The notes under the pieces: model-generated
Databases searched by the model: none
What the model saw: only the letters and a program-made list of their open reading frames with translations
Told to the model about the DNA's origin: nothing
Position numbers and translations under genes: made by a program
From: Tetmemena sp. SeJ-2015
Taxonomy: Eukaryota; Ciliophora; Spirotrichea; Sporadotrichida; Oxytrichidae
Assembly (NCBI GenBank): GCA_027382625.1
Contig: JAJKFJ010022346.1
Coordinates: 62,001-126,000, forward strand
DNA length: 64,000 nucleotides
Reading direction: 5' to 3'
Shown: positions 12,701 through 33,145 of the stretch, piece by piece
Layout of the letters: every line of letters starts with the position of its first letter
How positions within the stretch are numbered: position 1 is the first letter of the stretch

Positions 12701-12710
12701 TCCTGCTTGC
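12701..12710 (-). repeat. Pointer GCAAGCAGGA (KATNAL2 segment 2/3 join)
   Basis: This 10-bp word at the 3' end of segment 2 is repeated exactly at 21534-21543 on the opposite strand. Overlapping the copies gives GEHEASR followed by [13 protein letters not shown], which is continuous in katanin-like proteins. Confidence 0.93.
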
Positions 12711-13065
12711 CTCGTGCTCTCCTGAGCTTGTTCTTGAACTCATGATACTGTCGATCTCATCAAAGAAGATAGTGCTTGGCTGATGATACCTTGCTATTTC
12801 AAACAGAAGTCTGACTAGCTTTTCACTATCTCCTCGCCATTTACTTACTATAGTTGATGCGCTCATGTTGAAGAAGGTAGTTCTGCATTCAGTTGCTACT
12901 GCTTTAGCAAGCATGGTTTTACCGGTACCTGGAGGACCGAATAATAAGATTCCTTTCCAAGGCTCTAAGATTCCAGTGAATAAATGAGGATACTTCATAG
13001 GCATCAAAACTGCTTCTTTCATAAGTCTTTTCGCATCATCTAGTCCTATAATATCGTGGAATCTA
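12701..13065 (-). CDS. KATNAL2: KATNAL2 scrambled segment 2 of 3 (AAA ATPase core, first half)
   Basis: This segment encodes the Walker A half of a katanin p60-like 2 AAA ATPase, a microtubule-severing enzyme family. Visible motifs are [34 protein letters not shown], the pore segment [20 protein letters not shown], and Walker [11 protein letters not shown]. It has no start or stop of its own. Its 5' end carries TAGATTCCAC (complement of 13056-13065), shared with segment 1 at 32239-32248. Its 3' end carries GCAAGCAGGA (complement of 12701-12710), shared with segment 3 at 21534-21543. Both overlaps restore the conserved frame. Beyond each pointer the frame loses similarity to the family. Confidence 0.93.
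13056..13065 (-). repeat. Pointer TAGATTCCAC (KATNAL2 segment 1/2 join)
   Basis: This 10-bp word at the 5' end of segment 2 is repeated exactly at 32239-32248, both read on the minus strand. Overlap gives NENPNVRF followed by [10 protein letters not shown], as expected for the KATNAL2 family. Confidence 0.93.
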
Positions 13066-13116
13066 TCTTAAAAAATTGCTGCCACTATAAATTTAGTTTC
13101 TATAGATTTAAATATG

Positions 13117-13126
13117 CAAGTCTCAA
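13117..13126 (-). repeat. Pointer TTGAGACTTG (SF3A3 segment 1/2 join)
   Basis: The same 10-bp word is at 44981-44990 on the plus strand. Overlap gives KRVAHLET followed by [20 protein letters not shown] in one frame. Without the join, segment 1 runs into non-conserved sequence. Confidence 0.93.
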
Positions 13127-14412
13127 GATGAGCAACGCGCTTTGCTTTTTACTTTTCAGTTTCGGTAAACTCACTTTTAGATGGTTAAGCTTGGCTCAAG
13201 TCATTCAATCCTTTCGAACTTTCATTCTGTTGCAATGCAAGTCTCTTACTCATCTCATTTACAGCTTTAATGTGAATCTCAATAAATAGAGACTTAATTA
13301 ATTGTATGTGTTACTTTCCTTTCTTATGATGCATGAAGACATTCTCATTCGTATAAGTTTTGTTGCAAGCTATGCAAAACAAGGGATTAGTTTGCTGTAG
13401 TTGCTACCCTTCATCTCCCTCTGAACTTTAGTTCTGCTAGCTCCTTATATTTGCTCCCTCTCCATTGATTCTCATTATTACCTCTTCCCATCCAAAAAGA
13501 CTTCCCTACTCCCACTCTGCTTAAAAGAGCTCCTCTTGCTACTCTTCTATTCTACTCCATTCCAAAAGAGGCTGAGTCTTTCTGAAAAATTACACCAGGT
13601 AATCCTTCAACCCTCTCAAATATAACTCGTACTTCGCTGAATTCTTTAGATAGAGAGGCACGAGATAGAGTTTATCAAAATGCTACAGCCAACTTAAGTA
13701 GTCTTCTGCTCGAATTACTCCCAGAGATTTCAGCTTTTTAAGATTACAGAAAGCCAAGTAGTGCGAATGAAGATCAAAGTACTTTCCGTTTCCTTCTTCA
13801 GCAGTAAAATGCTTGTCGCAAAAAGCAATAACATCCTCTTCCATGATCTTGTTAAAGAGTGCTTCTGCATCTAATGACTCAGCATCCGAAGAAATGAGGT
13901 GAGCTTGGCCATATCTATTATGAAAATCAGTAAGCTCATTTAGCTTTTCATCAAAGTTATCCCATACATCAGCTTTTAGTTGAGGTACATTTTATGTAGC
14001 CAATGCACTCTAAAGCATCTCTTATTGCTTATAAGTCTAAAGAGAACATTAAAATATATATCTAAACTTACGGCTCTTTGCTGCAGAAGGTCAGTAGCAA
14101 ACTTTTGGCCACTGAATACATCATTTTCTTCTTTAAATAGGCCCTCTTAGTCTGAATAAATTGCCAATATTTCTTTGCTCTTGGTTTAAATAATTTGCTA
14201 GAATTTGGCAATGAGGATATCGCAGACAACAGTTTCCTTAGGCTAAAAGAAATGATAGTTAAGCAAACAGTTAAAGTGAAGAGAGTGATTATACTTACAA
14301 ATTTGTCTTTGTAGTCGAAAGCTTAAGCTAGCGCCTTTTCTAAGCTCTCTATCATCTCAAAGTCACTTCGGAGAATCTCCAATCTAAATTAATAAGTAAA
14401 ATTTGAAAACAT
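13117..14412 (-). CDS. SF3A3: SF3A3 (SF3a60/PRP9) scrambled segment 1 of 2
   Basis: This is the N-terminal two thirds of splicing factor 3A subunit 3, part of the U2 snRNP. A possible start is ATG at 14412 (MFSNFTYQFRLEILRSDFEM). GT-AG introns interrupt it near 14243-14295 and 14037-14071. Recognisable parts are the segment with DVFSGQKFATDLL, then YFDLHSHYLAFCNLKKL, LKDYLVQFFRKTQPL, and a C2H2 finger NPLFCIACNKTYTNENVFMH followed by HKKGK. The segment ends at pointer TTGAGACTTG (complement of 13117-13126), after KRVAHLE. The rest of the gene is at 44981 on the other strand, almost 32 kb away. Only a 51-bp spacer separates this segment from KATNAL2 segment 2. Confidence 0.93.
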
Positions 14413-31090: not shown

Positions 31091-31535
31091 GAGTTCAATA
31101 AATTAGATAATTAGGATTTCAATTTATTATCGACAATCTATCCTTAACATATCCATCTACTTCAATCCATCTCACAATTCAAAAGATACAAAAATTTATT
31201 TTACTAAAAGTACTAGTAATAATCCTTCAGAATATTGCTAAATTTTTTTCTTCTTCCATTTAATTTTTAAAGTCTTGTAGCGACTATTTTAAAATGAGAA
31301 GTAATAAATAATGCAGAAGATTGCACCTACTCGAGAATAAACATAATTACTACTATTGCGACTATATAAGAAGTGAGTTGATTAGAATCTTGTTATAAAA
31401 TATTGAATTGAGAAGAGAAAGACGCACACCCGTTCGGCAAGCATTCGAAACTGAGGAGCTATTCACCCCGACTTTCGCATTAGCAACTCCCTCTCTGCCT
31501 CAATCCGCTTCCTTCCGCAAAACGCGATCAGTTGC

Positions 31536-32054
31536 TCATTCACTAAACCCCCTTTAAATACACTTTATACCTCTTTCTATTTGTATATTTATTAAATTTT
31601 CTAGGTTTGATTTCTTCTCCTCCTTCTTGGCTCCCTGGACGTGGGATCTGGTAGCAACATGAAGTCTTTGCACTCTCTTGAGGGCGAGCTTTCTCACTCT
31701 CTCGGAGATGTGAGTAAGACCCTTGACAACTTTTGCGATTCTGTTCACGCCTCTCTTGATGGGTTGGGCGGAGTAGACGGCACCGGAGGTAGAGCCCTTC
31801 TTTGCCTTGGTGACCTTGTTGTGGGACTTGTGTCTGTTGAGGAGCACGAACTGAGCCTTGGTGGCCTTCTTTGCCTTGACCTTGGAGGCCTGGATGCTCA
31901 CAGCTTGGTTGTTGCTGAGACCGGAAGCGGAGGCGTTGTGGAAACCGGTGAGGTTGAGGGGGTCGTGGGAGAACTGCTGGCCGTTGTACTTAACCAGGAA
32001 GGAGTTGTTCTTCTTTGTCAATTGCCACAATACACAGTTGGGAAGCTTCACCAT
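31536..32054 (-). CDS. RPL28: 60S ribosomal protein eL28
   Basis: This is a structural protein of the large ribosomal subunit. It starts at ATG 32054 with MVKLPNCVLWQLTKKNNSFL, then VKYNGQQFSHDPLNLTGFHN. Basic regions NRHKSHNKVTKAKKGS and NRIAKVVKGLTHISERVRKL follow, matching the eL28 fold order. The core ends in a Lys/Glu cluster (GAKKEEKK). The frame then reads on through TAA (Gln) to TGA 31536, adding an unusual tail of about 25 residues. That tail may be spurious if an IES or intron lies near 31620. Codon use is more G+C-rich than its neighbours, as expected for a highly expressed gene. The open frames on the plus strand here are shadows. Confidence 0.9.
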
Positions 32055-32238
32055 CTTACTAAACAGTTTAATACATCCATATTTATTAGCGTGGGGGGAC
32101 TTACCTTATATGTAATTAATAATTAAATAATAAAACATACAATCGCTCTCCGTTTAATTTATCTTCCACTGTATCTTCCATCTTTCTCCTCTCTCCACCC
32201 CTTCCTCTATCAGCACTCATAGAGTTAGAAAAGTCAAT

Positions 32239-33145
32239 GTGGAATCTAACGTTGGGATTTTCATTGATGATTTCTCGTTGGATAGTCAAGGCCAGTTCTT
32301 TAAGTTCAGGGTTCCAAGAGTAATCTGGAAGTGGCTTGATGATTCTATTCTCAAAAAATTCTTCAACTTAGTCCACTTCTACTGGCTTATTTTTGATGTT
32401 CTTACCCTCCAAAACAAATCCTTCTCCACCTAATCCTTATCCACCATTCTTGTTCTCCTCTTAGTTTAAAGAGTAATTTGTATCATAATTCTTAGTTATT
32501 AATTTTCTTTCCTTGGGAATTCTATTTGTGTAAAGGCGCCTTACCACCAGGTGTATTATAGGTTGTCTAAGCTATAAATTAAAATTTTAAAATAATATTT
32601 TCAAATAGCTGGTCCTCCTCTATTGAGCATGCCTCCAACTGCAGCAGCTGAATTTTGAATAACCTCTTTTATATATCGATTTATTTAAATTTGGCTTTCT
32701 AAAGTTTACCTGGCTACTGCTGTTACTGCTATTACTGACTCTGGCTCTCCCTTGACTTGATTCACATTAGATGCAGACCCTATCTTAGGTAAGTTCACTC
32801 GTTGCTTCTTGGGATCTACTTCATTGAATGATTTGCGAGTCAACACTGGCTTCCTCTAGAACTTCATCTCATAGTATTCCTCGAAATCCTACACTATATA
32901 GAACAATCTATGTTTAGTAAAATAATTCATCATCTTGAACAAAAATAATTTTAAATTTAATTGTCTGCAACCTCCCATTTATCTAGTCCCAGGTTACACT
33001 CTCTAGTGAGAGCACCTGCAGCATCAAGATATCCACAGTTCACCAAGTGCTTTTGAATCATGACTAGTAGATTCCTCTTTCTCTCGGTGGCTCTTTTTTC
33101 TTCTTAAAGTCTAGACTCACCTTCTGCTTTATATTTCAACAACAT
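32239..33145 (-). CDS. KATNAL2: KATNAL2 scrambled segment 1 of 3 (LisH N-terminal part)
   Basis: This encodes the N-terminal part of katanin p60-like 2. A LisH motif is visible: ERKRNLLVMIQKHLVNCGYL followed by DAAGALTRECNLGLDKWEVA. After an interruption near 32900-32945 comes VQDFEEYYEMKFQRKPVL. A linker with an intron near 32700 and a second interruption near 32550 follows, then VEEFFENRIIKPLPDYSWNP and ELKELALTIQREIINENPNV. It ends at pointer TAGATTCCAC (complement of 32239-32248), which continues at 13065. The start at ATG 33145 (MLLKYKAEGESRLQEEKRAT) is the first in this frame after a stop. It resembles the known N-terminal region but is not certain. Confidence 0.9.

What the first reader, a model, noticed from the sequence alone, without database searches (positions are those of the whole stretch)
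12701..33145. KATNAL2 gene scrambled into three segments with one inversion over 20 kb
Seen: segment 1 (33145-32239, -), segment 2 (13065-12701, -) and segment 3 (21534-22131, +) share exact 10-bp pointers pairwise, and overlapping them restores a continuous LisH-AAA katanin protein. Known: hypotrich germline genes can be scrambled and unscrambled via pointers. Inference: segment 3 must be inverted during development.
Basis: partly seen in the sequence, partly recalled or inferred. Interest (0 to 1): 0.93.

Follow-up and report, generated by a model that had tools for sequence, protein, structure and literature searches.

The report
Scrambled ciliate katanin gene, partly inverted
In this ciliate's germline DNA a katanin (microtubule-cutting) gene lies in three separated pieces, one of them backwards, with short matching tags that show how they fit together; this is real, but it is a normal feature of this group of ciliates, and at least two other genes in the same stretch are scrambled as well.

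Summary
Segment 1 (33145-32239, -), segment 2 (13065-12701, -) and segment 3 (21534-22131, +) share exact 10-bp repeats (TAGATTCCAC; GCAAGCAGGA). Overlapping these, and removing three small IESs and an intron, gives an open 550-aa katanin protein, 76% identical to an intact 500-aa relative, gapless at both joins; keeping both pointer copies gives 11 stops. No intact copy was found in the held 146-Mb assembly. On a second haplotype contig segment 2 keeps both pointers and its 7 differences are all synonymous, so it is not a relic. I also found SF3A3 scrambled with an inversion (10-bp pointer, 31.9 kb apart) and interleaved with KATNAL2, and CCT4 with its halves swapped (11-bp pointer). Elsewhere in this genome 1 of 8 other chaperonin loci that can be judged is out of order; published rates are 13.6-15.6% for Tetmemena and Oxytricha. 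Best reading: micronuclear DNA of a hypotrich-like ciliate, unscrambled by pointer-guided joining. The joins were not seen in somatic DNA of this species. New member of a known kind.

The parts
32239..33145 (-). KATNAL2 segment 1: start codon to ...NPNVRFH (N-terminal part, linker, start of AAA region)
   Evidence: tblastn of P0121 residues 1-34, 37-113, 141-215; joined ORF
32239..32248 (-). pointer 1, copy at end of segment 1 (TAGATTCCAC)
13056..13065 (-). pointer 1, copy at start of segment 2 (TAGATTCCAC)
   Evidence: conserved on haplotype contig C4572
12701..13065 (-). KATNAL2 segment 2: most of the AAA ATPase domain with the GPPGTGKT loop
   Evidence: 7 of 7 haplotype differences synonymous
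12701..12710 (-). pointer 2, copy at end of segment 2 (GCAAGCAGGA)
   Evidence: conserved on C4572
21534..21543 (+). pointer 2, copy at start of segment 3 (GCAAGCAGGA)
21534..22131 (+). KATNAL2 segment 3, inverted relative to segments 1 and 2: rest of AAA, lid, C-terminus, TGA stop
32574..32610 (-). conventional IES in segment 1, pointer AGCT, 37 bp
   Evidence: frame restored on removal
32467..32497 (-). conventional IES in segment 1, pointer AACTAAGA, 31 bp
   Evidence: frame restored on removal
32912..32961 (-). interruption in segment 1, probably an IES (AT pointer gives an open frame but one residue fewer than P0121); boundaries unsettled
21786..21827 (+). GT-AG intron in segment 3, 42 bp
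21944..21980 (+). conventional IES in segment 3, pointer GAG, 37 bp
   Evidence: removal gives NWSIAADP, as in P0121 NWSVAADP
13117..14090 (-). SF3A3 part a (SF3A3 domain, C2H2 zinc finger), scrambled and interleaved with KATNAL2; upper bound is the open frame, the gene's N-terminal end was not mapped; holds one conventional IES (CACAT, 13310-13275)
   Evidence: Pfam PF16837, PF12171
13117..13126 (-). SF3A3 pointer TTGAGACTTG, copy at end of part a
44981..44990 (+). SF3A3 pointer TTGAGACTTG, copy at start of part b
44981..45619 (+). SF3A3 part b (PF11931 C-terminal domain), inverted relative to part a; holds one conventional IES (TCCAC, 45398-45437)
61512..62374 (-). CCT4 (TCP-1 delta) second half, lying before the first half on this strand; pointer GTCGTTCACGA at 62374-62364; lower end approximate
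60270..61172 (-). CCT4 first half; pointer GTCGTTCACGA at 60280-60270; upper end approximate

Best explanation
The window is germline (micronuclear) DNA of a hypotrich-like spirotrich ciliate. KATNAL2 lies there as about seven MDSs in three blocks ordered 2(-), 3(+), 1(-) over 20.4 kb. In the developing macronucleus the blocks are recombined at two 10-bp pointers, one copy of each being kept, which moves and inverts block 3 relative to 1 and 2, while short IESs inside blocks 1 and 3 are removed. Shown here: the blocks, the pointers, frame restoration, collinearity with intact relatives, no intact copy found in the held assembly, synonymous-only change in block 2, and interleaving with a second scrambled gene, SF3A3. 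Inferred from published work on Oxytricha: joining at the DNA level during development, guided by template RNAs; a part for transposases and small RNAs is also inferred.
For: Exact pointers at protein-homology boundaries. Overlap needed for the frame: 1 stop against 11. Alignment to P0121 at 76% with no gap at either join. Of 219 homologues (those listed, out of thousands found), 214 of the 214 that span join 1 are gapless within 8 residues; at join 2, 152 of 219 are, and in the other 67 the gap lies only 3-8 residues upstream. Nearest relative P0006 (94%, from a public contig of 1007 bp) is continuous across both joins. Own genome: the window's copies, haplotype contig C4572 and AAA relatives at 29-65% protein identity. 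Segment 2: 7 of 7 haplotype differences synonymous, P about 2e-4. Two more scrambled genes in the window. C4A4 repeats, DDE_3 transposases and Piwi genes in the same assembly. No GT-AG pair near either join gives the protein (0 of 63 and 0 of 21).
Against: No somatic chromosome of this species was seen, and no joined copy is in the assembly. Segments 1 and 3 have no second-haplotype contig, so their placement rests on one contig. The interruption at 32961-32912 leaves the protein one residue short of P0121, so one MDS boundary, or a base of the assembly, is unsettled. The short contigs of the relatives could be transcripts.
Confidence: 0.93

Rival explanations
1. The segments are relics: fragments of a broken KATNAL2 copy, with the working gene elsewhere.
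For: None direct; the completeness of the assembly is unknown.
Against: No intact close copy found in 146 Mb: all other protein matches are AAA relatives at 29-65% identity. The pieces tile the protein with no loss at the joins. All 7 differences in segment 2 between haplotypes are synonymous (P about 2e-4).
Confidence: 0.02
2. Mis-assembly: a contiguous gene was broken and reordered by the assembler.
For: Segments 1 and 3 are on one contig only.
Against: Segment 2 with its non-katanin flanks and the adjoining SF3A3 part lies on a separate haplotype contig in the same arrangement. Mis-joins would not be expected to put exact 10-bp repeats at the coding boundary of each piece, three times over in two genes.
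Confidence: 0.03
3. The segments are exons joined by RNA trans-splicing and not by DNA rearrangement.
For: The protein outcome would be the same.
Against: No GT-AG combination around either join gives the exact protein (0 of 63 at join 1, 0 of 21 at join 2), whereas the pointer join does at both; the intron in segment 3 does have GT-AG. Relatives have the region continuous on contigs of about 1-2.5 kb, though these could be transcripts.
Confidence: 0.02

Closest known systems
Scrambled genes of Oxytricha trifallax, Tetmemena sp. and Euplotes woodruffi (PMC9797194: Results section read in full, plus passages)
   Same: MDSs out of order and inverted, joined at pointers of typically 2-20 bp; scrambled pointers tend to be longer than unscrambled ones, as here (10, 10, 10, 11 bp against 3-8 bp for the clear unscrambled ones)
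   Different: This assembly (146.2 Mb, 5213 contigs) does not match the germline assemblies of those three species (496, 237, 172 Mb); katanin is not mentioned in the main text held
Interleaved and Russian doll loci of Oxytricha (PMC5940158: outline and section 9, part 1 of 2 read)
   Same: KATNAL2 and SF3A3 each have an MDS inside an IES of the other, which is that paper's definition of interleaved; 387 + 47 of 15,811 MAC contigs there are interleaved
   Different: Other genes, other assembly; depth of nesting not measured here
Katanin p60 A-like 2 (KATNAL2) of other ciliates
   Same: Collinear protein along its whole length; groups with P0121 and with a Moneuplotes protein named A-like 2
   Different: Germline copy is split and inverted; LisH not detected by Pfam here; the tree does not settle A-like 2 against A1, since the animal A-like 2 rows do not group with the ciliates

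Membership tests
[quoted passage not shown]
   Order 2(-), 3(+), 1(-)
Scrambled germline gene of a spirotrich ciliate | Short repeat (pointer) at both ends of each join, one copy kept | tested here: met
   Two exact 10-bp pointers; overlap needed for the frame
Scrambled germline gene of a spirotrich ciliate | No intact copy in the germline | tested here: met
   In the held assembly only, completeness unknown
Scrambled germline gene of a spirotrich ciliate | Joined copy on a telomere-capped macronuclear chromosome of the same species | not testable with these tools
   No somatic sequence of this species held; relatives have the region continuous on short contigs
Scrambled germline gene of a spirotrich ciliate | Spirotrich telomere repeat and hypotrich code | tested here: met
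   67 exact C4A4 matches (21 of them on one contig, C2828; the tool's reversed-pattern control is uninformative because the pattern reads the same backwards); the joined frame needs TAA/TAG as Gln and ends in TGA. That these are marks of hypotrichs is recalled
[quoted passage not shown]
   SF3A3-a lies between KATNAL2 segments 2 and 3; KATNAL2 segments 3 and 1 lie between SF3A3-a and -b
KATNAL2 | AAA domain, AAA lid and Vps4-type C-terminus | tested here: met
   PF00004, PF17862 and PF09336 all above cut-off; these are shared with other katanins
KATNAL2 | N-terminal LisH motif | tested here: inconclusive
   No Pfam family in the N-terminal 110 aa; Tetrahymena P0127 below cut-off too
KATNAL2 | Groups with KATNAL2 and apart from katanin A1 in a tree | tested here: inconclusive
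   Ciliate rows form one set (96/95); animal A-like 2, an oomycete A-like 2 and plant/alga p60 rows fall outside it on long branches

The most novel reading that the evidence does not exclude
KATNAL2 and SF3A3 were not scrambled independently: their broken ends lie 51 bp apart (SF3A3-a end at 13117, KATNAL2 segment 2 start at 13065), so a shared germline break may have split both conserved genes, and both must now be resolved together across 32 kb in each development.
Probability: 0.2. Interest if true: 0.5.

Novelty: new member of a known kind. Interest (0 to 1): 0.36.

Why it matters
It adds a clean worked example of two conserved genes that are interleaved and inverted in a germline assembly whose size matches none of those given in the papers I opened. 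It shows that scrambled genes can be recognised from germline sequence alone by pointer plus protein continuity, without a somatic genome. It does not change what is known of the mechanism.

Tried and rejected
Single-inversion origin of both scrambles: a search over inversions gives a minimum of 4 to make both genes intact; among all 3840 signed orders of the five pieces 1864 need 3, 1168 need 4 and 120 need 5, so the observed order is not specially simple. This counts against the simplest form of the novel case.

A tiny missing MDS supplying the Ile-Asp absent at 32961-32912: two degenerate patterns found no match in the window.

An RNA intron at that place: the best GT-AG choice scores 125, the AT-pointer cut 136, and the best one-base-pointer cut 146; one-base pointers mean little.

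Naming the species: paper searches listed no assembly that I could match to this size; the sizes in PMC9797194 (Results) and PMC10901763 (outline and section 15: 135, 225, 496 and 120 Mb) differ. 18S searches did not complete. P0121's label is a bare number that I recall as the style of an Oxytricha trifallax NCBI number; no call confirms it.

Papers on a scrambled katanin: one search found 69 papers with at least 3 of 4 terms; the 15 listed each show 0 for katanin; the other 54 were not looked at. One search gave only a listing.

The region-B part of the script returned nothing because of a faulty end test; redone directly. The SF3A3 IES guess used wrong letters; redone.
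Full report
Observation. TAGATTCCAC closes segment 1 (32248-32239, -) and opens segment 2 (13065-13056, -); GCAAGCAGGA closes segment 2 (12710-12701, -) and opens segment 3 (21534-21543, +). The first occurs nowhere else in the window; the second has one extra copy at 56271. By chance two given positions share an exact run of 10 or more in 56 of 2,000,000 random pairs. Allowing some 40 bp of slack at each boundary this is still about one in a thousand per join (my arithmetic). Overlapping at the pointers, with small IESs and an intron removed, gives one open frame of 550 codons plus TGA, with TAA and TAG as Gln; keeping both pointer copies gives 11 stops.

Protein test. 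A 500-aa relative (P0121) matches as residues 1-34, 37-113 and 141-215 on segment 1, 213-333 on segment 2, and 326-456 and 449-500 on segment 3; the start at 326 includes five flanking residues before the pointer-coded ASR at 331-333. The joined protein is 76% identical to it over residues 29-550, without a gap at either join. I checked the 219 homologues listed (out of 7611 and 7988 found). Join 1 is gapless within 8 residues in 214 of the 214 that span it. Join 2 is in 152 of 219; in the other 67 the gap lies 3-8 residues upstream, none within -2 to +8, and the four shown have a one-residue insertion in the loop before it. The nearest relative, P0006, is 94% identical across both joins on a contig of 1007 bp. 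Pfam gives AAA, AAA lid and Vps4_C. The LisH motif is not found in the window protein. A tree of 18 rows puts it with P0006 (85/95) in a set of 7 rows that includes P0121 and Moneuplotes (99/97), within a ciliate set (96/95). The root is arbitrary and several branches are long; the tree does not settle A-like 2 against A1, so the name KATNAL2 rests on collinearity and on the names of hits.

Inner anatomy. Segment 1 holds unscrambled IESs with pointers AGCT (37 bp) and AACTAAGA (31 bp); segment 3 holds a 42-bp GT-AG intron and an IES with pointer GAG (37 bp). A further interruption at about 32961-32912 gives an open frame with an AT pointer but one residue fewer than P0121; I could not settle it. 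So the gene has about seven MDSs, two of whose six joins are scrambled.

Same genome. The window is part of a 151-kb contig (C3098) in an assembly of 146,216,379 bases in 5213 contigs. A search with the protein of segments 2 and 3 returned 69 matches: the window's two segments, contig C4572, and AAA relatives at 29-65% identity; no intact KATNAL2. DNA searches found for segment 1 the window alone, for segment 2 the window, C4572 and six shorter matches at 72-89%, for segment 3 the window and one 69-bp match at 78%. C4572 (13.5 kb) is a second haplotype of window 3108-17468, at 93.8-96.6% in three blocks. On it segment 2 keeps both pointers and differs at 7 bases, all synonymous; for random changes of the same types the chance is about 2e-4. 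The isolated piece therefore looks to be under selection as coding sequence.

Second gene. Directly upstream of segment 2 on the same strand is the front of SF3A3 (PF16837 and a zinc finger). The C-terminal domain PF11931 matched at one place only in the assembly, window 45211-45610 on the other strand. The two parts share TTGAGACTTG (13126-13117, - and 44981-44990, +), present nowhere else in the window. Joined there, with two small IESs removed, they align over the whole 294 aa of the relative P0223, with a few gaps, one of a single residue seven positions after the pointer. By the definition in PMC5940158 (section 9, part 1 of 2 read) KATNAL2 and SF3A3 are interleaved. The broken ends of the two genes are 51 bp apart, and that stretch is identical on both haplotypes.

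Third gene. CCT4 (TCP-1 delta by best PDB matches) has its second half (62374 to about 61512, -) before its first half (about 61172 to 60270, -), with the 11-bp pointer GTCGTTCACGA. A search with PF00118 gave 39 matches on 14 contigs; merging three haplotype pairs by hand gives 11 loci, of which 9 have two or more matches and can be judged. Two of these 9 are out of order: the window's CCT4, already known to me, and C2995, where one weak piece (33 bits) is displaced. Leaving out the window, that is 1 of 8. Published fractions are 15.6% for O. trifallax, 13.6% for Tetmemena and 7.3% for E. woodruffi (PMC9797194, Results). The sample is small, but the locus does not look exceptional for such a genome. 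Of the 330 ORFs listed, 50 were scanned with Pfam, so more scrambled genes may be present.

Mechanism. Shown: pieces, pointers, frame, selection, interleaving. Inferred from the literature: DNA joining in the developing macronucleus guided by template RNAs (PMC9797194 passages). The assembly holds many DDE_3 transposase matches (150 scored of 921 candidates) and 31 Piwi matches, in keeping with this but not proof. No GT-AG combination near either join gives the exact protein (0 of 63 and 0 of 21), while the pointer joins do, against RNA trans-splicing.

Verdict. Real, well supported, and a new member of a known kind. What remains open is direct proof from somatic DNA, one small interruption in segment 1, the species, and whether the two genes were broken together; for the last, the order needs at least four inversions, so no single inversion explains it.

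Noticed in passing
13117-14090 (-) and 44981-45619 (+): SF3A3 is scrambled with an inversion and interleaved with KATNAL2; 10-bp pointer TTGAGACTTG.
   Followed up: yes
60270-62374 (-): CCT4 (TCP-1 delta) has its two halves in swapped order with an 11-bp pointer GTCGTTCACGA.
   Followed up: yes
G000 contig C2995:59329-60649: Another chaperonin gene has a weakly matching piece (profile 393-427) out of order.
   Followed up: no
13066-13116: Only 51 bp separate the broken ends of SF3A3-a and KATNAL2 segment 2; no difference between the two haplotypes there.
   Followed up: partly
19562-20634 (+), 31536-32216 (-), 34874-35833 (-), 50070-50699 (-), 11302-12666 (+), 25454-26320 (-): Other genes by Pfam: Pumilio repeats, ribosomal L28e, bZIP, proteasome beta (beta-1/beta-6 type), NDUFA5-like and NUDIX, ubiquitin-like; whether these are scrambled was not examined in detail.
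   Followed up: partly
47001-51000 and 60001-64000: G+C rises to 0.43-0.56 against about 0.25-0.42 elsewhere; the second stretch holds CCT4, the first includes the proteasome gene.
   Followed up: no
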